The notes beneath the pieces were generated by a model. The model was not told the origin of the DNA. It did not search any database and was given only the letters and a program-made list of their open reading frames with translations. Position numbers and translations under genes: made by a program. DNA of 55,797 nucleotides from a virus. The first letter of the stretch is position 1; every line of letters starts with the position of its first letter. The DNA is taken from positions 1-55,797 of IMG/VR virus record IMGVR_UViG_3300018410_000011; one strand, given 5' to 3'. This document shows, in pieces, positions 23,026 through 48,009 of the stretch.

Positions 23026-24024
23026 ATGGCAGATGTATTTAATTTAGACGAATCAGCAGAAGTAAGCTCATGGTCAGAATCAAAAAAAGTAAACAATGAT
23101 GGTCTTTTAAGACCGAAATTAGAAGAAGGAAAAGATGGTAAACGTGAATTAACTATTCGATTTTTACCAAATATGATTTCAGAAAATCAATTAGGTCCAA
23201 CAGCAATTGAAAAACATATTCACTATGCAAATTTCAAAAATAATCCAGAATTACAAGGATATTATGACTGTTTAAAAAACACAAATATTGGAAAAGATTG
23301 CCCATTATGTAAAACATTTTGGTTATTGAAAAATTCTAATAATCCAGCAGAACAAGAAAAAGCAAAATTAATAAGTAGAAATACAAAATACTATTCATAT
23401 GTATTAGTAGTAGATGATGAACAAGTTCCAGAAAACGAAGGAAAAATCTTTATTTTCCCATTTGGATTTAAAATCTACGAAAAAATTAAAGCAAAATTAG
23501 AAGCTAAAAAACGTCCATTTAAAGTAGAAGATTTAATTAATGGTGCTGACTTTAATTTAGTTATTAAAGAAGTAGCAGGTTTTTATAATTATGATTCTTC
23601 TGAATTTGATACACCAGAACCAATTACTATTAATGGTAAAATGTTAAAAGTAAATGATGATGGAACTATTGATAAATCAGAAAGAAAACGAGTAATTGAA
23701 TTCTTATTATCAAGAGAACACACATTAGAAGAATTCTTACCTCAAGATTGGACGCCAGAACAATATGATAAAGTGGAAAAAATTATTTCTGTATTATCAG
23801 GACAAGCATATACTGGACAATCTAGTAATAACAACACAACAACACCATTAAGTACATCATCTGTATTTTCTGATGATGATGATGATGATGATGAAGTGGT
23901 AGTAACGAAAACTAGAAAAACTAAAGTTGTAGAAGCAGTAGAAACAGAAGAAGAAGAAGCACCACAAGCTTTGAAAGCATCTAAGAAAAGAGCTGCACAA
24001 TTTTTTGATGACGATGAAGATTAA
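23026..24024 (+). CDS. 32: gp32-like single-strand DNA-binding protein
   Basis: A 332-residue protein that matches T4 gp32 in plan. It has a basic N-terminal arm, an OB-fold core and a zinc site in which H64 or H66 pairs with C82, C92 and C95. The spacing C-x9-C-x2-C is the same as in T4. The C-terminal tail is extremely acidic (DDDDDDDE, then FFDDDED), as expected for the part that recruits replication proteins. It covers ssDNA in replication, recombination and repair. The AAAAGGAAAAATT before the ATG is one of the few Shine-Dalgarno-like sequences in the window. It is transcribed alone between two terminators. Confidence 0.9.
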   Translation: MADVFNLDESAEVSSWSESKKVNNDGLLRPKLEEGKDGKRELTIRFLPNMISENQLGPTAIEKHIHYANFKNNPELQGYYDCLKNTNIGKDCPLCKTFWLLKNSNNPAEQEKAKLISRNTKYYSYVLVVDDEQVPENEGKIFIFPFGFKIYEKIKAKLEAKKRPFKVEDLINGADFNLVIKEVAGFYNYDSSEFDTPEPITINGKMLKVNDDGTIDKSERKRVIEFLLSREHTLEEFLPQDWTPEQYDKVEKIISVLSGQAYTGQSSNNNTTTPLSTSSVFSDDDDDDDEVVVTKTRKTKVVEAVETEEEEAPQALKASKKRAAQFFDDDED

Positions 24025-33219: not shown

Positions 33220-33765
33220 ATGAATCGAGTAATAATAATAGAAGGTGTACGAAATGTAGGAAAATCATTCTTAATATCTAAAATAGATAAACCTGAAAAA
33301 TATAAATTTATGTTTTCAGATTATTTTGTAAATTCATTTATATATGATTTTGATGAAACTACAATTGAATGTAATGATAAAAAAGAATTACACTATTTTT
33401 TATTAGGAACTGATGTATCTTTTCTAAATTTAATAAAAGAAAAAATAATAAATAAAGATTTAATCATAGATCGTGGATTTATTTCAACATTAGTTTTTGG
33501 TATTCAAGCAAATAGAATTACTTATAAACAAGCATTAAATCAAGGAAAATATATTTTAGACAAATACGGAAATAATATTAAAATAATTTTAGTATCATCA
33601 GAATTTAAAGAAGATAATAGAAATAAAGACATGTGGTCTTTTTATAATCAAAAAGAAACTAATGATTTATATTTAAAATTATTAAAAGATTTAAATATAG
33701 AATACGTAATTTTTAATAATGAATTTAAAGAAAAAAATATAGAAGAATTTAGAAATATGTTTTAA
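33220..33765 (+). CDS. Deoxynucleoside / thymidylate kinase-like protein
   Basis: The 181 residues start with Walker A IIIEGVRNVGKSF (GKS at 14-16) and have LIIDRGFISTLVFG with the DR motif near residue 84 that senses the nucleotide sugar in dNK/TMPK enzymes. The C-terminal part IKIILVSSEFKEDNR fits the strand before the lid. The length is short but acceptable. It would feed dNTP synthesis. It starts three bases after the leader gene. Confidence 0.7.
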   Translation: MNRVIIIEGVRNVGKSFLISKIDKPEKYKFMFSDYFVNSFIYDFDETTIECNDKKELHYFLLGTDVSFLNLIKEKIINKDLIIDRGFISTLVFGIQANRITYKQALNQGKYILDKYGNNIKIILVSSEFKEDNRNKDMWSFYNQKETNDLYLKLLKDLNIEYVIFNNEFKEKNIEEFRNMF

Positions 33766-35269: not shown

Positions 35270-35892
35270 TCAATAGTTCTCTCTTTTATATTTAATATTC
35301 CTAAATAATCCATTTTTAAATCTTTTAATGACCATAACTCATTACTAATATCAGCGTCAGGTACGCAACTATAAAATTTCTTTTTATATTTTTCAGGTAA
35401 ATCAGATGGTCGTTTAACATTTAGTTTATTAAATATATTTAACTTAAGTGATTTTCTTATTTCTTTTATTTCATCTTTTTCTAATGATGAAATCCAAACA
35501 TTTAAATCAAATTTTACACCGTATTTATTATTAATTGAATTAGGACATTTTTGTTGTTGTTGTTTTATATTAATAATATCAATATCATCTGTCTTATCAT
35601 TATATAAATCAACACCATATACATAAAATAATCTAGTACTGTCATCCACACCCTTTAAACAATTATCGATAGAATTTGATAATGAAACTCTAGCTGTAAA
35701 ATCATCTTCTATAACTGAATTATTGTTTTGGTACGGGTTATTTGGTACTTTTGCTGTAAAAATAAAAGTACCATCATTATTTAATAATTTTTTATAAGAT
35801 AAATGAAAATATTTATACTCAGATTCTGCTTTATCTATAGTATAAATATTTTCATTTAATTTATTTCTAAATTCATTAATTGTCGTTATCAT
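35266..35892 (-). CDS. Capsid-leader protein, unassigned catalytic-looking domain
   Basis: The 208 residues start MITTINEFRNKLNE. The cargo has YKYFHLSYKKLL, then AKVPNNPYQ, then IEDDFTARVSLSNSIDNCLK, then LFYVYGVDL. I recall this pattern (FHLS ... P.NP ... ED.T.R...S.S...C) from phage and bacterial proteins related to ADP-ribosyltransferase-like folds, but cannot prove it. It overlaps both neighbouring leader genes by four bases. Confidence 0.6.
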   Translation of the reverse strand: MITTINEFRNKLNENIYTIDKAESEYKYFHLSYKKLLNNDGTFIFTAKVPNNPYQNNNSVIEDDFTARVSLSNSIDNCLKGVDDSTRLFYVYGVDLYNDKTDDIDIINIKQQQQKCPNSINNKYGVKFDLNVWISSLEKDEIKEIRKSLKLNIFNKLNVKRPSDLPEKYKKKFYSCVPDADISNELWSLKDLKMDYLGILNIKERTIE

Positions 35893-36638
35893 TTAGCTGT
35901 AATAAATTTATTTTTATTTATATCATAAACTAACCAACCATCTTCACCTCTTCCAGGAATCCATTCACAATCTATTTCAATATTTATTAATTTTTCACAT
36001 TCAGAAAATTTATCAAATATATGATTTTTAATAAGATTTATTAAACCATTATCATCAAAAGGATTAGAATCACATAAATTAATTGCTATTTTATACTCTT
36101 CTTTATTAATATAAACATCACCATAATCTATTGATAATGTTTTAATACCATTTGAAAAATTTATTAAATTTTTCAAATTTATAATTTTATCAAATTTATT
36201 ATTAGATTCAATTGATTCTTTAATATATTCACCGTTTTTTAATACATCTATAAATTCTTGTTCGAAATTACCATTATTATCAAAAACAGTATATTCCGTT
36301 CTATCAATATAACATACTAATGGATAATTATCTTTAGAATTTATAGTAGTACCAAATTCATAATATTCATCATTTATTTTTATTGTATAATTAGAAATAA
36401 AAATAATTCCTAATAAATTATTTTGTTTTATATCAAATGGTTCTCCACTTTCTTCTATTACTATATTAATACCTTCTGGTAATTTATTTTCATGTATTAA
36501 TAAAGCTAATCTACCCATACATTTTAATAATTTAGATTCATTAAAAAAATCACGAGGAATTACTCTATGATAATTATAAATAGATTCATTTATTTTTTTT
36601 AATGTTATTAATTTATATTCATTAATCGTTGTTATCAT
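35889..36638 (-). CDS. Capsid-leader protein, unknown cargo
   Basis: The 249 residues start MITTINEYKLITLKKINE, a leader with a four-residue extension before the INE site. The cargo begins YNYHRVIPRDFFNESKLLKC and continues with a beta-rich region ending WIPGRGEDGWLVYDIN. I recall DFFNESKLLKC from other phage proteins of unknown function. It heads the three-gene overlapping run 34760-36638. A TTTAATATATAA-like variant lies upstream (around 36643). Confidence 0.6.
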   Translation of the reverse strand: MITTINEYKLITLKKINESIYNYHRVIPRDFFNESKLLKCMGRLALLIHENKLPEGINIVIEESGEPFDIKQNNLLGIIFISNYTIKINDEYYEFGTTINSKDNYPLVCYIDRTEYTVFDNNGNFEQEFIDVLKNGEYIKESIESNNKFDKIINLKNLINFSNGIKTLSIDYGDVYINKEEYKIAINLCDSNPFDDNGLINLIKNHIFDKFSECEKLINIEIDCEWIPGRGEDGWLVYDINKNKFITAK

Positions 36639-36674: not shown

Positions 36675-37031
36675 TCATTTAAAATATCTAAAGCCTTGAA
36701 ATCCTTTCATTGTAATTGGATCAATTTTATAAAATTTACCGGTACGTTCAATAAATTTACCTTTCCAAATATTACCAGTAGTTGTACATTTAAACTCTTT
36801 TTCACTCAGTCCAGAGATAATATGGTAGCCTATAACATTACCATTATAACATATATAGCATTTACTTCCAATATTTGTTCTAGGGAAACCATTTGTCTTA
36901 AAATTTAAAACTTCACCATTTTCTGCTGCAATTAATTCTTTTTCATACTCATTCCATTTAATTGATTTAGGAATAGTAATTATAATGTCTTGACTCATAT
37001 ATTTTTTAAATTCGTTAATTGTTGTTATCAT
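36675..37031 (-). CDS. Capsid-leader protein, small beta-rich cargo
   Basis: The 118 residues start MITTINEFKKYMSQ. The expected cleavage Glu is replaced by Gln, so processing is doubtful. The cargo has IGSKCYICYNGNVIGYHIIS and KEFKCTTTGNIWKGKFIERT, a compact beta-barrel-like pattern that could bind RNA or nucleotides (for example an ASCH/EVE-like fold; low certainty). It follows the deoxyribosyltransferase-Nudix gene by 12 bases. Confidence 0.6.
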   Translation of the reverse strand: MITTINEFKKYMSQDIIITIPKSIKWNEYEKELIAAENGEVLNFKTNGFPRTNIGSKCYICYNGNVIGYHIISGLSEKEFKCTTTGNIWKGKFIERTGKFYKIDPITMKGFQGFRYFK

Positions 37032-37043
37032 ATAATTATATAT

Positions 37044-38195
37044 TTATTTTATAACTGACATTATTTGTCCTAAGTTGGACCAATCTAAATATTGCATATT
37101 GATAGCATCTTCTAATGTAATTACATGTAATTCTGTTCGTTCCGTGTCTTCTATATTTCCAAAAGTTTGACCAACACAAGATTTTATTTTATTCATTTCT
37201 AATTCTGATAAAGTATAAGAATATAAAAACGATTTATGTGTTAACATAGTAGAACAAATTTGTCTAGCACTTTCAAATATTAATTTTTCTATTTGTGGTG
37301 TAAATCCAGTTTCTTCTTCTAATTCATCAACCATAATTGTTTTAGGATCTACTCCTTCTTTTACGCTTGACCCACCTGGTAATTCATATACTTTACCTTT
37401 TGTATTATTAACTGGTGATCTAAATTCAGATACTAAAACTAATTCTGTTTTCATTATATCTTGATTTGGTAAGTATAAAACACATGAACTAATATCTGGT
37501 CTAGAAAATATAAATTCGTTATTTTTATATCTATTTTCATCACGGATATAAATATTAACCCATAAAGAAAAAGCAAATATTTTATTATTACTAGGAATAC
37601 GATAAACATTTAATACTTTGGCATCAGAAATCCAATTACGATTTAATTTTAATTGTTTATACCAAGATTGAAATTGTTCTGTTTTCCATATTTCTTGTGG
37701 TATAAATCTTTCTCCATCAATTCTTTTATAATCTTCTTGTGTTTCATATACATGTTTAATAGCAGAAAATAATTCATGATAAACTGGTACTTTTAAATCT
37801 TTTGCCCACCATTCTTGATAACGTACTGAATCTGCAGTTAATTCTGTAGACAAGATACATTTACCAGAATCTTTCCAGTAACCCCATTCATCATTCGTAG
37901 TTAACCCTAATAGTTCAGTCTTAGTATTTCTATTAATATGAAATAATATGTTATCTGACGCTCTTAAGGCACGAGTTTCCCATAATATTTGTGATTCATA
38001 ATTAAAATCTTCAAAATTTCCTTCTCTAGCTTCCGGTACAAATACGATACCATCATATCCAATTAGATTTAATATTTCTAATGCTTTAATTCTCCAACTT
38101 ATACCTACTTGTCCAGGTCTTAATGACGGACCAGCTAAAAATAAAGATTTATTAATTTCATTTGGTATAGATTCTTGTGCGTATATTATTTTCAT
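37044..38195 (-). CDS. Nucleoside deoxyribosyltransferase-like / Nudix hydrolase fusion
   Basis: A 383-residue two-domain protein. Residues 1-150 resemble nucleoside 2-deoxyribosyltransferases: SLFLAGPSLRPG, ALEILNLIGYDGIVFVPEAR and RALRASDNILFHINR. The C-terminal third holds a Nudix box around residues 273-297 (GGSSVKEG ... DELEEETGF), slightly longer than the standard spacing. Such fusions could remove or recycle modified nucleotides or ADP-ribose compounds. ADP-ribose-related activity would fit the ADP-ribosyltransferase-rich leader arsenal or a counter to NAD-depleting defences (both inference). There is no leader, so it is probably made in the infected cell. Confidence 0.75.
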   Translation of the reverse strand: MKIIYAQESIPNEINKSLFLAGPSLRPGQVGISWRIKALEILNLIGYDGIVFVPEAREGNFEDFNYESQILWETRALRASDNILFHINRNTKTELLGLTTNDEWGYWKDSGKCILSTELTADSVRYQEWWAKDLKVPVYHELFSAIKHVYETQEDYKRIDGERFIPQEIWKTEQFQSWYKQLKLNRNWISDAKVLNVYRIPSNNKIFAFSLWVNIYIRDENRYKNNEFIFSRPDISSCVLYLPNQDIMKTELVLVSEFRSPVNNTKGKVYELPGGSSVKEGVDPKTIMVDELEEETGFTPQIEKLIFESARQICSTMLTHKSFLYSYTLSELEMNKIKSCVGQTFGNIEDTERTELHVITLEDAINMQYLDWSNLGQIMSVIK

Positions 38196-38850: not shown

Positions 38851-39057
38851 TTATAAATAATTCTCCATATCAAACCATGATATTATTAATGCATTAATAA
38901 TTAGAACTAATGAAGAACATAGGTATGTATAAGTTAAAAAAATTGACACATATCCTATTGCTATTAATATAGCAGATATTAATACAATTATTAAAGGAAT
39001 TAATAATAATATTGCTCTGATTTTTATTTGTTGTAAGTATTTATTTACTTTTTTCAT
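38851..39057 (-). CDS. Small two-helix membrane protein
   Basis: The 68 residues have a basic N-terminus (MKKVNKYLQQIKIR) followed by two hydrophobic segments at about residues 15-36 and 40-60. This should give an in-in hairpin in the inner membrane. Holins and superinfection-exclusion proteins can look like this, but there is no direct evidence. It overlaps the FMN reductase gene by four bases. Confidence 0.55.
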   Translation of the reverse strand: MKKVNKYLQQIKIRAILLLIPLIIVLISAILIAIGYVSIFLTYTYLCSSLVLIINALIISWFDMENYL

Positions 39058-39524
39058 AATTTTAAAAAATTGTTTATTTGGTTATTTATTAGTGTTTTAG
39101 TTTTATTATCTATAATTTCATTATCATTTATAAGATTATTGATAGACGGAAAATATAATCTATCATAAAATGGTATAGCTTTAAGATATAACATTACATC
39201 ACATAAATGATCTACTCCACGTACATTACCTTGTAATCCAGCTGCAATACCTGTGAATAATATATGTTTATCTTTAAATGTATTCATATTGCAATTATCA
39301 ATTAATAATTTTAATTGTCCAGGATATGATCCATTATATTCAGGAATAACGAATATTATTTTATTAGAATTGTTTATATTATTTTGTACTTGTAATATAT
39401 CTGTGTTTGGATATATTAAATGTGTATTATACATTTCATGTAATATTTGATAGTAATATGTAGAAAATATTTGACTCTTATTACCAGTTCTATTAGTACC
39501 GTTTATTATTGTTATATCATTCAT
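39054..39524 (-). CDS. NADPH-dependent FMN reductase-like flavoprotein
   Basis: The 156 residues follow the flavodoxin-like FMN reductase plan. IINGTNRTGNKSQ is the phosphate loop, VIPEYNGSYPGQLKLLID is the family signature, and TGIAAGLQGNVRGVDHL lies near the flavin. Family members reduce FMN, quinones or azo dyes with NAD(P)H. A role in phage redox supply for nucleotide synthesis is possible. It is divergent from the DNA-modification operon. Confidence 0.8.
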   Translation of the reverse strand: MNDITIINGTNRTGNKSQIFSTYYYQILHEMYNTHLIYPNTDILQVQNNINNSNKIIFVIPEYNGSYPGQLKLLIDNCNMNTFKDKHILFTGIAAGLQGNVRGVDHLCDVMLYLKAIPFYDRLYFPSINNLINDNEIIDNKTKTLINNQINNFLKL

Positions 39525-39576
39525 AATCTTTATATAAAAATTTTAAACAATTGTTTATATATCATATATAAAGTTT

Positions 39577-40284
39577 ATGAATGAATATAATACATTTGAA
39601 GAAGCTTTTATTGGGCTAAATCAAGAATTAATAGAAAAATATCAATATAATATTGAATCACGTATTGGAACAACATTAGAAATTTGTCCTATTTTATATA
39701 AAATAAATGATGTATCAACATATAAATTTGATAATGAAAAAATAGGACGTTTAGATTATGAATATTGTGATACTTATTATAATTGGATGATTAGTGGAAA
39801 TACAGAAATTAAAGAATTGGCTGAAAAATATCCTAATACTTCTAGATTTTTAGAAAAACCAAAATCAAATCTTTTACCAGAAAATTTCAATACATTTTAT
39901 GGTCCAAGAATTAATTATCAATTAGAAAATATAATTAATGAACTTAAAAATAATAAAAATACTAGAAGAGCTGTTATATCTATATTAGATAAAGAAGATA
40001 CTAATTTATTAGCTTTAGATGAAACATTAGAATTCCCGTGTACAGATTCGGCAACATTTTATATTAGAAATAATAAATTAAATGTTCATGTACATATGAG
40101 ATCACAGAATGTTGGACAAGTAATTAAGTTAGATATGTATTTATGGGGTAGATTTACAACAGAATTAGCAAATAAATTAGGTTATGCGCCTGGTTCATTT
40201 ACGTCTAGTATTGTATCAGCTCATTTATTTACAAGAGATTTAGATTATTTAAAAGAATTAATAAACACATATAATGAGAAATAA
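39577..40284 (+). CDS. Deoxycytidylate hydroxymethylase (thymidylate-synthase family)
   Basis: The 235 residues keep the thymidylate-synthase core: FYGPRI, TRRAVIS with R130 and R131 for phosphate, EFPCTDSATF with catalytic C155, and MRSQNVG. The Asn that reads uracil in true synthases (LPFN in the gene at 46115) aligns with D186 (KLD). That Asn-to-Asp change is the known mark of enzymes acting on dCMP, such as T4 gp42. The likely reaction is dCMP plus methylene-tetrahydrofolate giving 5-hydroxymethyl-dCMP. It is the first gene of a four-gene overlapping operon whose other products handle a sugar. The protein is a little shorter than T4 gp42. Confidence 0.75.
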   Translation: MNEYNTFEEAFIGLNQELIEKYQYNIESRIGTTLEICPILYKINDVSTYKFDNEKIGRLDYEYCDTYYNWMISGNTEIKELAEKYPNTSRFLEKPKSNLLPENFNTFYGPRINYQLENIINELKNNKNTRRAVISILDKEDTNLLALDETLEFPCTDSATFYIRNNKLNVHVHMRSQNVGQVIKLDMYLWGRFTTELANKLGYAPGSFTSSIVSAHLFTRDLDYLKELINTYNEK

Positions 40285-41929
40285 ATTAATATTAGATTTT
40301 GATGGTATTTTTGCATCAAATATGTTATATAATGAAACAGGTAAAAGTTATAAAACTTTTACTTGGGGCATTAGACACGCTATAGATATGTTAATTGAAA
40401 ATGGAATTGATGTTTATATAATTAGTGGAGATTCTACAGAAAAAGGACAATCCATTACTAGAAAATTTTGTGAAAATTTAAAAGTTAAAGAAATTACATT
40501 TACTAATTCTAAACATAAATTATCATATTTAAAGCAAAAATATAATTTAGATGAATGTTATTATTGTGGTGATGATATTTATGACGTAGAATTATTTAAA
40601 CATATGTACGGTATTACACATAAAAATACACATCATACAATAAGTAAATATGCTAAATATGTTAGTGAATATACAACATCAGATTATTTTTTTACTGATA
40701 TGTCATTATATATATTAGCTAAAAAATATAATACGGGTATAAATAATATTTCTAATTTAATTGGTAAAGATTGTAATAAAGAATCATTATCTGATTCATT
40801 AATGGATTTACGATATAAAAACATTTTTATATTACAGCAATATAGTATGAGAAACCATACCGATAATAAATATAATCCATTATTAGATGGTAATTTAAAT
40901 TTAACATTTAATAGAATTTATAATTCTGTTAAAAATAATCCAAATTTAAATTATACAATTACTATTCCTACTAATATAAATGAATCACAATATGAAACAT
41001 TGAAAATATTAGTTGATAAGATTTTTGGTGAAAATCGTATATTTTTTAAAGAAATAGAATATGGTATAAATGCACCAGCTAATTATGAGAAATTTTCTGG
41101 AGATTATATTATAGATAATAAATATGATTTGTTTATTACATATTTTGCTAATTATGGTATAAATATTGATAAATTTACAAATAATCAAGAATATAAAATA
41201 ATTTATTGTTTTAATATATCTAAAGTAAAAGATTTATCACGTGAATATATTGATAAATTTTTTAAAATTCAATATGAATCAGTTAAATCTTTTACAAATA
41301 AAGTTTATGTTTTAAATCAAAATCAAAAAGATTATTTTTTAGAATATTCAAAAGAAATTAATGATATATTTATAAAAGAATTACAAATAAAACAAAATGT
41401 TTTAGTTGATAGTCTTTTAATTAATAAAACATTTTTAAATAATCAAATTATTAATTTAATCCCAAATGAAACAAATGAAATTACACATGATTTTTTAAAA
41501 ATTTTAAAAAACAGAAAATCTAATTTCATATTTTTTCCATTTAGGTTATCAGATAAATGTTATGAATTTGAATTTTTATTAGAAAAAATAAGTAAAAGTA
41601 ATTCATATTATACAATATTTATAACGGATCCTAACAATACAATTAATGATTATATTATACCTAATAATGTAAATATATATAATTTACAAAATAAAAAATA
41701 TGATAGTAAAGTTATGTATTTATTATTTTTAATGTATTGTAATGAATATAATGTTAGTATTCCTGTATTTGAAAATCCTTTAATAGTTATGCACCAATCT
41801 ATTTTAGAAATGACGCATTTAACTGATAATGTTAAATTTTTAAATGTAAATAATTTTGATATTAAAACATTATATGATTTTAATGATATAACAGGTATAA
41901 AAGATAAAATAAAAAATTATATTAATTGA
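40274..41929 (+). CDS. HAD phosphatase / GT-B-like glycosyltransferase fusion
   Basis: A 551-residue protein. Residues 1-160 form a HAD phosphatase of the KdsC type: LILDFDGIFASN (D8, D10), IISGDSTEKGQ and YYCGDDIYDVELF (D100, D101). The remaining 390 residues have two Rossmann-like halves and an end such as VSIPVFENPLIVMHQSILEM, which resembles the C-terminal half of GT-B glycosyltransferases. I infer that the HAD part removes the 5-phosphate of an activated pentose and that the rest transfers the sugar to hydroxymethylcytosine in DNA. It overlaps the hydroxymethylase gene by 11 bases. Confidence 0.65.
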   Translation: MRNKLILDFDGIFASNMLYNETGKSYKTFTWGIRHAIDMLIENGIDVYIISGDSTEKGQSITRKFCENLKVKEITFTNSKHKLSYLKQKYNLDECYYCGDDIYDVELFKHMYGITHKNTHHTISKYAKYVSEYTTSDYFFTDMSLYILAKKYNTGINNISNLIGKDCNKESLSDSLMDLRYKNIFILQQYSMRNHTDNKYNPLLDGNLNLTFNRIYNSVKNNPNLNYTITIPTNINESQYETLKILVDKIFGENRIFFKEIEYGINAPANYEKFSGDYIIDNKYDLFITYFANYGINIDKFTNNQEYKIIYCFNISKVKDLSREYIDKFFKIQYESVKSFTNKVYVLNQNQKDYFLEYSKEINDIFIKELQIKQNVLVDSLLINKTFLNNQIINLIPNETNEITHDFLKILKNRKSNFIFFPFRLSDKCYEFEFLLEKISKSNSYYTIFITDPNNTINDYIIPNNVNIYNLQNKKYDSKVMYLLFLMYCNEYNVSIPVFENPLIVMHQSILEMTHLTDNVKFLNVNNFDIKTLYDFNDITGIKDKIKNYIN

Positions 41930-41930
41930 T

Positions 41931-42551
41931 ATGATAAAAATTAGTAAACATATACAAAATACACAAAATTATTTAAATCAATCATTAACTGATTTATTAA
42001 CAGATAATAATATTAAAACAATAGATAATATAATTGAAGATATTATTAAAACAGTTAATAATAAAGGAAAAGTTATTTTTACTGGTATAGGTAAAAATGT
42101 GTATGCTGCACAAAAATTAGCTGCTTCTTATTCATCTATAGGTATTCCATCATTTTTTTTAGATGCAGTACATGCCGTACATGGTGATATAGGTGTAATG
42201 AATGATAATGATTTATTAATTTGTATGTCTAAATCTGGAAATACTTCTGAATTAATAAATACATTAATTCATATTAATAACAATAAAAAAACTTTTAAGT
42301 TTAAAGTAATAGGTATTGATTGTAATCCAGATAATGAAAATGGTTTTAATAAATATTGTGATTATTCATTATCTATTAAAACAGATAATGAATTAGATAT
42401 TTTAAATATGGTGCCAACTATTTCTTTATTAATGATTCAAATTGTTGGTGATATTATAGGTATAGAAGCAAGTGAACAATTAGGATTTAGTTCAGAAAAA
42501 TTTAGTATTAATCATCCTGGTGGATCTATTGGAAAGGCGTTAAGTAAATAA
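41931..42551 (+). CDS. kdsD-like: KdsD-like arabinose-5-phosphate isomerase (SIS domain)
   Basis: The 206 residues form one SIS domain without the CBS pair of bacterial KdsD. VIFTGIGKNVYAAQKLAASY (residues 48-67), HGDIG (84-88; HGDLG in KdsD) and CMSKSGNTSELI are family signatures. The C-terminal end INHPGGSIGKAL matches KdsD PGG.LG..L. KdsD interconverts ribulose 5-phosphate and arabinose 5-phosphate. Arabinose attached to hydroxymethylcytosine is known in T4-like phage RB69, so arabinose is the best guess for the sugar made here. A heptose-type isomerase is the main alternative. Confidence 0.8.
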   Translation: MIKISKHIQNTQNYLNQSLTDLLTDNNIKTIDNIIEDIIKTVNNKGKVIFTGIGKNVYAAQKLAASYSSIGIPSFFLDAVHAVHGDIGVMNDNDLLICMSKSGNTSELINTLIHINNNKKTFKFKVIGIDCNPDNENGFNKYCDYSLSIKTDNELDILNMVPTISLLMIQIVGDIIGIEASEQLGFSSEKFSINHPGGSIGKALSK

Positions 42552-44122
42552 TGACTAATAAAGGAATTATATTAGCAGGCGGTTTAGGAACACGTTTATA
42601 TAAATATACTAATGGATTATATCCTAAAATATTATTAAATTTAGGAAATTCTATATTTTTAGATAATCTTATAGAATTTTGGTTTAATGTACAAGAGGTA
42701 GAAGAATTAATAATAGTATTAAGTGAAAATGATCATATTTATAAAATACAAGAATATTTAAAAATTTTTTATAACGATAAAAATATAACATTATTAAAAT
42801 ACGATAAAGTAAATGGTACATTTAATACATTATTTTATGTATTAAATATGCGTAATGATTTATTAAAATCTAATTTAATAATATCATGGTCTGATATTAT
42901 TCCAACAGAAAAATTGAATATTCTTGAATATTCAGGTATAAAAATATTTACAGATAAAATATCAAGACATCGTTGTAATATTTGTAATTTAGGAATAATA
43001 ACAAATAAACCAGATTTAACAGGTAATATTCCTGGATTTTATAATATTAATGGATTAAATATTACTGATTGGATCAATTTTAAAAATTCTTATGAAAAAA
43101 TAAAACCAGAAATAGATATTACAGATTATTTGATAACATGTTCAAATATTATTCAAGAAAAAATAGATTTATTAGATATAGGTGATATTGAAAAATACGA
43201 AAACGTATTAAAAACACAAGATATTAAACAAAGATGGTTTAATAATATTATATTTAATACAGATAATGTAATTAAATCATCTAATAGTGATTATGGTTTA
43301 TCAGTAATTAAATCTGAAATTGAATTTTATAAAAAAATTCAAGGTACTGAAGCAGAAAATATATTTCCAAAAATATATGATTTATCAAATAATTCGATAA
43401 ATATGGAAAATTTATGTACTAATGGATATGTTACAGTAAATGAATTTTTAGAATCTAATCCTAATCAAGAAGATAAATTATTAGAAGATTATAAGAAAAA
43501 TATTAAAACATTACATAATATAAACCATACATTAACTAATTTTAATACAGATATTTATAAAGAATATATTCAAGTTCCTATTGAACGTTATTCTAAAATA
43601 AATTATTTTATTCCTAATATCGATATTTTAAATATAAATGATAAAGATATTTATATTAATTATGATTTTTATGAAACTATGGATAAGTTATTAAAATATT
43701 TTTCTAATAAAGAATTTAATATAGCCCTTATACACGGTGATACAAACAGTACTAATACTTTATATAATCAATCAACTAATAAAATAGCCTTAATTGATCC
43801 AAGAGGTAAATTTGGTAATACATTATATTACGGTGATACCAATTATGATTTAGCTAAATTTGTATATGGTATCACTGGTTATGATAAATTTAATTTAGAT
43901 AAGTATTTTAATTTTAATTTTTCTAATAATTTCCTAGACCTTAAAAAAATTAAAATAGATTTACCAGAATTAAATTTATTAGATAACCTAAATATTTCTA
44001 ATGATATAAAAATTTTAGTAGGTTTAATATGGTTAAAATTACCATTTTATATAAAAAATAATCCAAATAAAATAATAGCTTCTTATTATATAGGAATGTA
44101 TCTTATTAATAAATATTTATAA
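42551..44122 (+). CDS. Sugar nucleotidyltransferase / APH-like kinase fusion
   Basis: The 523 residues contain an N-terminal nucleotidyltransferase (GIILAGGLGTRLYKYTNGLY then PKILLNLG, with K26 of the signature) and a C-terminal kinase of the aminoglycoside-phosphotransferase fold (ALIHGDTNSTNTL near residue 395, IDPRG near 416, YDLAKF near 433). Together they would phosphorylate C1 of a sugar and then make the NDP-sugar, as the separate HddA and HddC proteins do for heptose. The ATG overlaps the previous stop. A terminator follows, so the operon ends here. Confidence 0.75.
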   Translation: MTNKGIILAGGLGTRLYKYTNGLYPKILLNLGNSIFLDNLIEFWFNVQEVEELIIVLSENDHIYKIQEYLKIFYNDKNITLLKYDKVNGTFNTLFYVLNMRNDLLKSNLIISWSDIIPTEKLNILEYSGIKIFTDKISRHRCNICNLGIITNKPDLTGNIPGFYNINGLNITDWINFKNSYEKIKPEIDITDYLITCSNIIQEKIDLLDIGDIEKYENVLKTQDIKQRWFNNIIFNTDNVIKSSNSDYGLSVIKSEIEFYKKIQGTEAENIFPKIYDLSNNSINMENLCTNGYVTVNEFLESNPNQEDKLLEDYKKNIKTLHNINHTLTNFNTDIYKEYIQVPIERYSKINYFIPNIDILNINDKDIYINYDFYETMDKLLKYFSNKEFNIALIHGDTNSTNTLYNQSTNKIALIDPRGKFGNTLYYGDTNYDLAKFVYGITGYDKFNLDKYFNFNFSNNFLDLKKIKIDLPELNLLDNLNISNDIKILVGLIWLKLPFYIKNNPNKIIASYYIGMYLINKYL

Positions 44123-44156
44123 AAAAAAGAGACTCTAAAAAGTCTCTTTTTTTTTT
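44121..44156. terminator. Bidirectional intrinsic terminator
   Basis: A-run, AGAGACT, CTAAAA, AGTCTCT and T-run lie between the sugar operon and the convergent hydrolase gene. Confidence 0.9.
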
Positions 44157-44159
44157 ATT

Positions 44160-44759
44160 TTAAAATAAAGAAAATGTATTGTTTTCTTTATTTATATCTT
44201 TTAATAATTTTGTCATAGCTATCATTAATACTTTAGGAGAATGACCATATTCGTTTACTAAATATTCTGGTTTATATTTATCAAATATATTTCTTGTTTG
44301 TCTTTCTATTTTCTCTTTTTTATTTATAGTAACTATAACTTTACCTTGATTTAATAAATTATAATTATCTATGGCTTCTTTAGTTGAAACATTAAAAGAT
44401 TCTGGTAAATACCATACAGGACTATTTATAATAATAGCTTTAAATTTTTGTAAAAAAATATAACTAGATAACATAATTCCACCATTAGAAAAACCAACTA
44501 ATATAGTTTCTTCTGTATTTATATTTATTTTTTTTAATATTTCAAACCCATGTCTATAATAAGGTTCGAAACCAGAACTTCTATTTTTATCCTTTCCATC
44601 TGCTGGAAATATTACGTATACATTACATTCATTTGGTATATGATATGGACAAGCATATAGATTAGTGTTATATCCAGGGAAATATAATACAGTTTGTCCT
44701 TCTCTATTACCAAATCTATATAATTTCAATCCATTAAATAATGTTTTTATAAATATCAT
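44160..44759 (-). CDS. Alpha/beta-hydrolase
   Basis: The 199 residues have the hydrolase order: VLYFPGYNTN (oxyanion region), VGFSNGGIM with the nucleophile Ser (GxSxG, near residue 94) and, near the C-terminus, VNEYGHSPKVLM with the likely catalytic His. It is closest in style to small esterases or peptidases of unknown substrate. There is no signal peptide or leader. It is a single gene between a terminator and the divergent DenV promoter. Confidence 0.7.
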   Translation of the reverse strand: MIFIKTLFNGLKLYRFGNREGQTVLYFPGYNTNLYACPYHIPNECNVYVIFPADGKDKNRSSGFEPYYRHGFEILKKININTEETILVGFSNGGIMLSSYIFLQKFKAIIINSPVWYLPESFNVSTKEAIDNYNLLNQGKVIVTINKKEKIERQTRNIFDKYKPEYLVNEYGHSPKVLMIAMTKLLKDINKENNTFSLF

Positions 44760-44794
44760 TTTTTTTTTTTAACAATTATATAAATTTAAATTGT

Positions 44795-44802
44795 TATATT
44801 TG
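44795..44802 (+). promoter_or_regulatory. Bacteroidetes-type -7 element
   Basis: TATATTTG starts 24 bases before the denV ATG at 44819, as at 969 and in the TATAATTG variants at 48060 and 51529. Confidence 0.6.
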
Positions 44803-44818
44803 TAAAAAATAAAAAAAA

Positions 44819-45271
44819 ATGACAAGAATAAATGGAAATATTCCACCTAAATTATTAGTAGATTCACATTTATTAGCCGAATATAGAGAAATTATTAGAA
44901 TTCCTAATATGGTTAATTCTACTGATTGTAATATTATATTAAGTCGCTTAAAAAATGCACCGAAACAATTTGTATTAGGTAAAGGACATGTTTTGTTTTT
45001 TTATGATAAAATACTATTTTTACATAAAAGGTTTTTATCTATATTATTAGAATTAAAAGCACGAGGATTTACTACAACTATAGATGACACATTATTTAAA
45101 AATACAAATACATTATTTTATAATGACGTGGATTTAGAATATTCTAATAATATTGTATGTGAAAGGATATGTGAACGTATTTTAAATATGAAAAGTATTA
45201 AAATTAATAAAAAAAATATAGATAAAAATGTCTATATTAATTATTTAAAAACTAAATTAAATGAGAGATAA
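44819..45271 (+). CDS. denV: Pyrimidine dimer DNA glycosylase / endonuclease V
   Basis: The 150 residues align along their length with T4 endonuclease V. They start MTRING, so Thr2 becomes the N-terminal nucleophile after Met removal. The catalytic Glu is in HLLAEYREIIR (E24, shifted by one from T4 E23). FVLGKGHVLFFYDKILFLHK (GHV.FFYDK.EFL.KR in T4) is kept. It nicks DNA at UV-induced cyclobutane dimers by glycosylase and lyase steps. It is under a host-type promoter and overlaps the next gene by 11 bases. Confidence 0.92.
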   Translation: MTRINGNIPPKLLVDSHLLAEYREIIRIPNMVNSTDCNIILSRLKNAPKQFVLGKGHVLFFYDKILFLHKRFLSILLELKARGFTTTIDDTLFKNTNTLFYNDVDLEYSNNIVCERICERILNMKSIKINKKNIDKNVYINYLKTKLNER

Positions 45272-47655: not shown

Positions 47656-48009
47656 TTAGTGGTTTTCCATATATTTATTTAATAAATCAGATGATTCATT
47701 TACATTACTATTATAAGTTGGACGATACCAATTATCTATATTTTCTGGGTCAATATTATTTCTATCTAAAAATTTACGAGTTACTAATTTAACTGTTGTA
47801 GAATTTATTTTTTCTTCTGGAAAATTATCTTTTAAATCGTTATAAAAATAAAAATTCTTATCTGAATTTAAATCATCTGTTTCAATATCAGAATAATTCC
47901 ACCCATCCATTATTTGATTAGTAGATTTAAATATAGCAAAATGAGTATAGTTTTTATCTGCCATAACATTTTCATATATTTTTTTAAACAATTTAATATC
48001 CGTTATCAT
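47656..48009 (-). CDS. Capsid-leader protein, unknown cargo
   Basis: The 117 residues start MITDIKLFKKIYE, and cleavage after IYE would leave a basic/acidic body (NYTHFAIFKSTNQIMDGWNY ... TTVKLVTRKFLDRNN). The motif W(N)YSD ... F.YNDL ... T..KL suggests a small alpha/beta fold, but no family is recognised. The late motif lies 29 bases upstream, back to back with the promoter of the large repeat gene. Confidence 0.6.
   Translation of the reverse strand: MITDIKLFKKIYENVMADKNYTHFAIFKSTNQIMDGWNYSDIETDDLNSDKNFYFYNDLKDNFPEEKINSTTVKLVTRKFLDRNNIDPENIDNWYRPTYNSNVNESSDLLNKYMENH

What the first reader, a model, noticed from the sequence alone, without database searches (positions are those of the whole stretch)
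39577..44122. Self-contained four-gene operon for sugar-modified hydroxymethylcytosine DNA
The order is: dCMP-hydroxymethylase-like gene, HAD/GT-B-like fusion, KdsD-like isomerase, nucleotidyltransferase/APH-kinase fusion. They overlap by 1-11 bases or abut and end at one terminator. Together they could take ribulose 5-phosphate to arabinose 5-phosphate, phosphorylate C1, remove the 5-phosphate, make NDP-arabinose and transfer it to hydroxymethylcytosine. Arabinosyl-hydroxymethylcytosine is known from T4-like RB69. Here all steps are compressed into four genes, two of them fusions. The exact sugar is inferred.
Basis: partly seen in the sequence, partly recalled or inferred. Interest (0 to 1): 0.92.

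Follow-up and report, generated by a model that had tools for sequence, protein, structure and literature searches.

The report
Compact phage operon for sugar-capped 5-hydroxycytosine
Four tightly packed virus genes most likely replace the cytosines of the phage's DNA with 5-hydroxycytosine carrying a D-arabinose, a known kind of protective DNA decoration, here in an unusually compact form with the sugar phosphatase fused to the sugar transferase.

Summary
The operon is real: four genes at 39577-44122, overlapping or abutting by 11, -1 and 1 bases, ending at the only terminator-like site of the region. Domain calls hold: thymidylate-synthase superfamily; KdsC-like HAD fused to a GT-B transferase (AlphaFold plus Foldseek); KdsD-like isomerase; nucleotidyltransferase/APH-kinase fusion. 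The chemistry needs correcting. The first enzyme is not a hydroxymethylase: it groups with phage RB69 ORF048c, apart from gp42, and has lost the catalytic Glu that every sampled gp42/TS keeps (Tyr67 here). RB69-type DNA has since been shown to carry arabinose directly on 5-hydroxycytosine, not on hydroxymethylcytosine. So the product is most likely 5-arabinosyl-hydroxycytosine. A second viral contig has the same fusion in the same operon (46% identity). Verdict: a new variant of a known kind. Accessory flavin-reductase or U32-hydroxylase genes beside the synthase are an open lead to how the oxygen is put on. Sugar identity and the end product are inferred.

The parts
39577..40284 (+). P0001: 5-hydroxy-dCMP synthase (thymidylate synthase superfamily, RB69 ORF048c type)
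   Evidence: Best PDB match 9iqu/9iqc E 1e-66, near-identical to RB69 ORF048c, against E 2e-12 for the next best TS. In a 100/99 supported clade with RB69 ORF048c, apart from gp42. Cys155 and Asp186 kept; catalytic Glu replaced by Tyr67.
40274..40768 (+). N-terminal domain of P0002 (residues 1-165): KdsC/KDN-9-P-phosphatase-like HAD, proposed 5-phosphatase of arabinose 1,5-bisphosphate (or of arabinose 5-phosphate)
   Evidence: TIGR01670 E 1.3e-12; Foldseek to KDN-9-P and KDO-8-P phosphatases, probability 1.00; motifs DFDG at 8, SGDST at 51, GDD at 99; homolog of PAU gp216.
40820..41878 (+). C-terminal domain of P0002 (residues 183-535): GT-B glycosyltransferase of the RB69 ORF047c/046c family, proposed arabinosyltransferase on 5-hydroxycytosine in DNA
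   Evidence: AlphaFold model mean pLDDT 81.5; Foldseek to GT-B UDP-sugar transferases, PDB 9kt0 E 4e-6, probability 1.00, and to RB69ORF047c; gene lies within +/-11 bases downstream of the synthase in most of 37 distinct relatives.
41931..42551 (+). P0003: D-arabinose 5-phosphate isomerase (KdsD/GutQ/KpsF-like SIS domain)
   Evidence: TIGR00393 E 1.4e-30, KdsD E 2e-28; phrog_5670 'arabinose 5-phosphate isomerase' E 1.3e-43; GIGK, SGNTSE, NELDI and NHPGG sites present.
42551..43225 (+). N-terminal domain of P0004: sugar-1-phosphate nucleotidyltransferase (approximate boundary)
   Evidence: PF00483 E 1.2e-6; GGLGTRL, PK and WSD motifs; the whole protein matches phrog_4098 E 1.7e-82 and RB69 ORF053c/052c.
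43226..44122 (+). C-terminal domain of P0004: APH-fold kinase, proposed anomeric (C1) sugar kinase (approximate boundary)
   Evidence: Weak Pfam signals to Choline_kinase, Fructosamin_kin and APH; HGDTNSTN at 395 and IDPRG at 415, with H395, D397, N402 and D416 invariant among six relatives.
44121..44154 (+). Rho-independent terminator-like hairpin closing the operon
39054..39524 (-). Accessory candidate: NADPH-dependent FMN reductase-like gene, divergent, 53 bases from the synthase
   Evidence: PF03358 E 2.7e-15; homologs near the synthase in all six distinct contigs of the closest synthase group and in 0 of 84 gp42/TS-type loci.
33220..33765 (+). Accessory candidate: dNMP/thymidylate-kinase-like gene, possibly the 5-hydroxy-dCMP kinase (weak)
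   Evidence: Match to the RB69 ORF045c family E 1e-6; phrog_761 thymidylate kinase E 1.1e-6. No PDB match.

Best explanation
The operon makes 5-arabinosyl-hydroxycytosine DNA. P0001 hydroxylates dCMP at C5 to 5-hydroxy-dCMP; a dNMP kinase raises it to the triphosphate and it is built into DNA in place of dC. P0003 turns ribulose 5-phosphate into D-arabinose 5-phosphate. The kinase half of P0004 phosphorylates C1, the HAD half of P0002 removes the 5-phosphate (the order of these two is not resolved), and the nucleotidyltransferase half of P0004 makes NDP-arabinose. The GT-B half of P0002 then transfers arabinose to the 5-hydroxyl of cytosine in DNA, shielding it from nucleases. Shown here: gene order, domain identities, folds, family membership, conserved sites, co-occurrence. 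Inferred: enzyme activities, the sugar, the nucleotide carrier, the final product.
For: P0001 is in the RB69 ORF048c clade (100/99) and lacks the gp42/TS Glu; its best PDB chain is a Mosigvirus-type enzyme. Literature: Mosigvirus DNA carries arabinose on 5-hydroxycytosine made by a TS-superfamily 5-hodCMP synthase, with isomerase, kinase and NTP-transferase genes in the cluster (PMC13390438). All four parts have relatives in the RB69 module: ORF048c, ORF047c/046c, ORF055c, ORF053c/052c. GT-B fold and KdsC fold of P0002 by structure. 30 of 31 distinct NTase/kinase genes with synthase and GT in the same locus also have a phosphatase from one of three families (EcbF identity of RB69 ORF051c; histidine phosphatase). 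Same operon with the same fusion in a second contig.
Against: No chemistry on this phage. No ORF003c-type second arabinosyltransferase in the window, though it is a 55.8-kb fragment. The dNMP kinase candidate is weak and outside the operon. P0002-GT shows no profile similarity to ORF003c, so its transferase role rests on fold, synteny and the literature's placing of one transferase inside the cluster. 32 distinct isomerase + NTase/kinase pairs occur without synthase, GT or any of the three phosphatases in the fetched flanks, so that pair also serves elsewhere. The papers establishing the 5-hydroxycytosine pathway could be read only through a citing paper.
Confidence: 0.74

Rival explanations
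1. One reading: P0001 is a dCMP hydroxymethylase and the DNA carries arabinosyl-5-hydroxymethylcytosine.
For: Same superfamily; P0001 keeps the Cys and the dCMP-selecting Asp that gp42 also has; the 2018 RB69 paper proposed ara-hmC (PMC6024577).
Against: gp42 and TS keep Glu at the position that is Tyr/Phe in P0001 and nearly all of its relatives, RB69 ORF048c included; separate supported clades; the RB69 structure has been corrected to 5-hydroxycytosine (PMC13390438).
Confidence: 0.06
2. Same 5-hydroxycytosine base, but the sugar is not D-arabinose (another pentose, or a sugar modified further by other phage or host enzymes).
For: The sugar is only inferred from the isomerase. Close relatives of P0001 sit beside other GTs and NAD-dependent epimerase/dehydratase genes, so the base is combined with different sugars. 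Shewanella phage Thanatos was reported with a deoxypentose on cytosine (PMC12838424).
Against: The isomerase is clearly KdsD/KpsF-like with its active-site residues, its family is annotated arabinose 5-phosphate isomerase in 5-ara-C phages, and no epimerase or dehydratase is in this operon.
Confidence: 0.15
3. The sugar genes decorate something other than DNA (host surface glycan or capsule) and lie next to a nucleotide enzyme by chance.
For: KdsD, KdsC, EcbF and NTase/kinase families come from polysaccharide synthesis; many viral isomerase + NTase/kinase pairs lack the synthase and this GT.
Against: The GT gene starts within about 11 bases of the synthase stop in most of 37 distinct relatives; the genes overlap in one transcription unit; the module is conserved between straboviruses and unrelated phages.
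Confidence: 0.04

Closest known systems
RB69 / Mosigvirus 5-arabinosyl-hydroxycytosine module (ORF045c-ORF055c plus ORF003c)
   Same: Homologous synthase (ORF048c), GT (ORF047c/046c), isomerase (ORF055c) and NTase/kinase (ORF053c/052c).
   Different: The phosphatase is KdsC-like and fused to the GT instead of a separate EcbF-like HAD (ORF051c); no U32 gene, no in-operon dNMP kinase and no ORF003c copy in the window.
IMGVR_UViG_3300025168_000033 (L115/L032)
   Same: Same HAD-GT fusion (46% identity), isomerase and NTase/kinase in the same order; synthase 54% identical; FMN-reductase gene upstream.
   Different: Has a dNMP kinase gene between the synthase and the fusion.
Sphingomonas phage PAU (gp181, gp182, gp212, gp215, gp216)
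   Same: KdsC-like HAD directly after the NTase/kinase; GT next to a TS-like gene; isomerase.
   Different: HAD and GT are separate genes about 22 kb apart; its TS-like protein is far diverged.
T4 gp42 / glucosyltransferase system
   Same: Same logic: modified dCMP built in, then sugar added on DNA.
   Different: Hydroxymethyl instead of hydroxyl; host UDP-glucose instead of a phage-made sugar donor; unrelated clade of TS-like enzyme.
Bacterial GDP-/ADP-heptose pathway (isomerase, C1 kinase, bisphosphate phosphatase, nucleotidyltransferase)
   Same: Same order of steps by analogy (own knowledge of GmhA/HddA/GmhB/HddC).
   Different: Pentose instead of heptose; the kinase is of the APH fold.

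Membership tests
5-hydroxy-dCMP synthase (RB69 ORF048c type) | Thymidylate synthase superfamily with the catalytic Cys and a dCMP-selecting Asp | tested here: met
   Cys155 and Asp186 aligned with C148 and D179 of T4 gp42
5-hydroxy-dCMP synthase (RB69 ORF048c type) | Clade with RB69 ORF048c, apart from gp42 | tested here: met
   21-row clade 100/99; gp42 clade 99/99
5-hydroxy-dCMP synthase (RB69 ORF048c type) | Makes 5-hydroxy-dCMP | not testable with these tools
   needs enzymology
dCMP hydroxymethylase (gp42) | Catalytic Glu (E60 in T4 gp42) | tested here: not met
   Tyr67 in P0001; Glu in all 13 gp42-type rows and in the window's own TS
5-arabinosyl-hydroxycytosine module | Synthase, GT, arabinose-5-P isomerase and NTase/kinase together | tested here: met
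5-arabinosyl-hydroxycytosine module | Dedicated dNMP kinase (ORF045c type) in the cluster | tested here: inconclusive
   none in the operon; weak match at 33220-33765
5-arabinosyl-hydroxycytosine module | Second arabinosyltransferase ORF003c | tested here: inconclusive
   no hit in the 55.8-kb fragment
5-arabinosyl-hydroxycytosine module | Arabinosyl-hydroxycytosine in virion DNA | not testable with these tools
   needs LC-MS
GT-B glycosyltransferase | Two Rossmann-like domains, match to GT-B structures | tested here: met
   AlphaFold pLDDT 81.5; Foldseek 9kt0, 8xfh and others, probability 1.00
KdsC equivalog (KDO-8-P phosphatase) | Score above the NCBIfam cut-off | tested here: not met
   47.9 bits against 106.95: KdsC-like, not KdsC itself
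KdsD equivalog | Score above the NCBIfam cut-off | tested here: not met
   99.6 against 505 bits; a short SIS-only form. Active-site residues present

The most novel reading that the evidence does not exclude
The TS-like 5-hydroxy-dCMP synthase gets its oxygen through an exchangeable partner: a dedicated flavin reductase gene in this phage group, a peptidase-U32 protein (family of RlhA and TrhP, linked to C5-hydroxylation of pyrimidines with prephenate) in RB69-like phages. A TS fold whose catalytic Glu became aromatic would then be a hydroxylase with swappable electron or oxygen sources.
Probability: 0.2. Interest if true: 0.7.

Novelty: new variant of a known kind. Interest (0 to 1): 0.47.

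Why it matters
It corrects the proposed base, shows the 5-hydroxycytosine sugar module outside straboviruses in a compact form with a phosphatase-GT fusion, and identifies the phosphatase step (non-homologous phosphatases in one slot; RB69 ORF051c re-annotated) of a pathway that a 2026 paper still calls not fully characterised. It also gives two testable partner candidates for the C5-hydroxylation of dCMP.

Tried and rejected
Single-sequence scan of IMG/VR with P0002 found nothing; an alignment of the two fusions found only the second contig again; no phage record matches over 80% of P0002. Scan of bacterial genomes for the NTase/kinase found no relative, so its cellular source stays open. Profile comparison of P0002-GT with ORF003c and ORF050c: no similarity; rejected the idea that P0002-GT is an ORF003c copy, and ORF050c turned out to be a U32 protein. 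Huge-phage records nearest by SSB lack the module. The FMN-reductase gene has no tblastn match in phage records.
Full report
Observation. Four + strand ORFs, 39577-40284, 40274-41929, 41931-42551 and 42551-44122, are packed with an 11-base overlap, a 1-base gap and a 1-base overlap and end at a hairpin with a T run at 44121-44154, the only terminator-like site in 38900-45000. The window is a 55,797-base virus record, probably a fragment. The arrangement is conserved: contig IMGVR_UViG_3300025168_000033 has synthase, dNMP kinase, the same HAD-GT fusion (542 aa, 46% identity), isomerase and NTase/kinase in one run.

First gene. P0001 matches PF00303 (E 4e-15), but its best solved relatives are 9iqu/9iqc at E 1e-66, whose sequence is nearly that of RB69 ORF048c; the next TS is at E 2e-12. 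In an alignment with T4 gp42, 12 further gp42-type proteins and the window's own thymidylate synthase, the catalytic Glu (T4 E60) is Glu in all of them, Tyr67 in P0001 and Phe or Tyr in nearly all of its relatives, while the nucleophilic Cys and the Asp that replaces the TS Asn are kept (catalytic roles from established TS/gp42 knowledge). In a maximum-likelihood tree P0001 lies in a 21-row clade (100/99) with RB69 ORF048c; gp42 forms another (99/99) (two very long branches, L072 and L029, are placed unsurely). A 2026 paper states that RB69-type phages carry arabinose joined directly to C5 through 5-hydroxy-dC, that the earlier hydroxymethyl assignment was an error, and that a TS-superfamily 5-hodCMP synthase makes the precursor (PMC13390438). 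It cites Lee et al. 2025 and Mahler et al. 2025, which are not held. So the base here is most likely 5-hydroxycytosine.

Fusion gene. Residues 5-133 of P0002 match KdsC-type HAD phosphatases (E 1.3e-12) and are homologous to PAU gp216, the gene directly after PAU's NTase/kinase. Residues 183-535 match phrog_3891 and RB69 ORF047c/046c, PhT2_004, Acj61p079 and PAU gp181. AlphaFold with 31 sequences gave pLDDT 81.5. Foldseek puts the N-terminus with KDN-9-P and KDO-8-P phosphatases and the C-terminus with GT-B UDP-sugar transferases, and finds RB69 ORF047c, ORF046c and phage glycosyltransferases in the viral library. A His...Glu pair (H507, E512) and an Arg-Ser-Asp motif (R424, D427) are conserved in the GT half; a donor-binding role is inference.

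Isomerase and NTase/kinase. P0003 is KpsF/KdsD-like (E 1.4e-30) with Lys, two Glu and His at the sites known for KdsD (the catalytic roles are own knowledge). P0004 has the GGxGTRL...PK nucleotidyltransferase motif and the HGDxNxxN / IDPRG kinase motifs, whose key residues are invariant in six relatives, and is a full-length homolog of phrog_4098 and RB69 ORF053c/052c.

Phosphatase slot. RB69 ORF051c and relatives, annotated as phosphoheptose isomerase, match EcbF/BcbF HAD phosphatases (TIGR01689, E 3.8e-13 for RB69, below that model's cut-off). Tenacibaculum phage PTm1 has a histidine phosphatase between its NTase/kinase and synthase. PAU, L041, L055, L056 and L067 have stand-alone KdsC-like HADs. 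Of 31 distinct NTase/kinase genes with synthase and GT in the locus, 30 have one of these three phosphatases. Non-homologous replacement in one slot supports a kinase-plus-phosphatase route to arabinose 1-phosphate; the order of the two steps is open. The GT gene lies within about 11 bases of the synthase in most of 37 distinct loci.

Limits. The sugar, the nucleotide carrier and the product are inferred. A dNMP kinase is missing from the operon (weak candidate at 33220-33765). No ORF003c copy is in this fragment. Thirty-two distinct isomerase-NTase pairs occur without the other parts in the flanks fetched, so that pair has other uses. 'Diverse viruses' in the title of Lee et al. suggests that part of this distribution may already be known; that could not be checked.

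Side lead. A PF03358 flavin-reductase gene (39054-39524) lies 53 bases from the synthase, divergent. Homologs lie 2.4-5.7 kb upstream of the synthase in all the close relatives and in none of 84 gp42/TS-type loci (the gp42 loci have shorter flanks, 4 kb, and the relatives form one clade). Many RB69-like phages instead have a peptidase-U32 gene (ORF050c) beside the synthase. U32 proteins RlhA and TrhP are needed for C5-hydroxylation of RNA pyrimidines with prephenate (PMC6599085). In 28 records the two never occur together, but many have neither.

Noticed in passing
window 39054-39524 (-); L008 2598-3071, L013 1867-2328, L114 1798-2268, L115 3795-4283, L112 2555-3106: NADPH-dependent FMN reductase-like gene near the synthase in every close relative and in none of 84 gp42/TS-type loci; possible reductant supply for dCMP hydroxylation.
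   Followed up: partly
L004 6493-7662 (RB69 ORF050c); L055, L056, L067, L072: RB69 'peptidase' ORF050c is a U32-family protein (RlhA/TrhP family, C5-hydroxylation of pyrimidines) inside the 5-hydroxycytosine cluster. In L055, L056 and L067 it sits near GT, isomerase, NTase and KdsC-HAD genes with no synthase found in the flank, so it might replace the synthase there.
   Followed up: partly
L004 7709-8095 (RB69 ORF051c), L003 5504-5890: Annotated phosphoheptose isomerase but matches EcbF/BcbF HAD phosphatases: likely mis-annotation.
   Followed up: yes
L108, L109, L110: gp42-type hydroxymethylase (Glu kept) beside NTase/kinase and EcbF-like HAD: candidate for a real sugar-hydroxymethylcytosine system with its own sugar donor.
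   Followed up: no
L008 7983-11732; L013 7989-13932: 5-hydroxy-dCMP synthases 59% identical to P0001 followed by a different putative GT, a dNMP kinase and NAD-dependent epimerase/dehydratase genes: the same base with other sugars.
   Followed up: no
window 23026-24021: The SSB is closest to 635-735 kb uncultured phage genomes (LR756504, 46%); the window may be a fragment of a huge phage. Those genomes lack the module.
   Followed up: partly
window 37044-38195 (-): Nucleoside 2-deoxyribosyltransferase-like domain with a weak NUDIX signal at the C-terminus, close to the operon.
   Followed up: no
window 35889-36638, 36675-37031, 47656-48009 (-); L008, L013: Several short proteins share a similar N-terminus (MITTINEFKK..., MKNLxTFEEFVNE...), also in relatives; possibly a targeting or packaging signal.
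   Followed up: no
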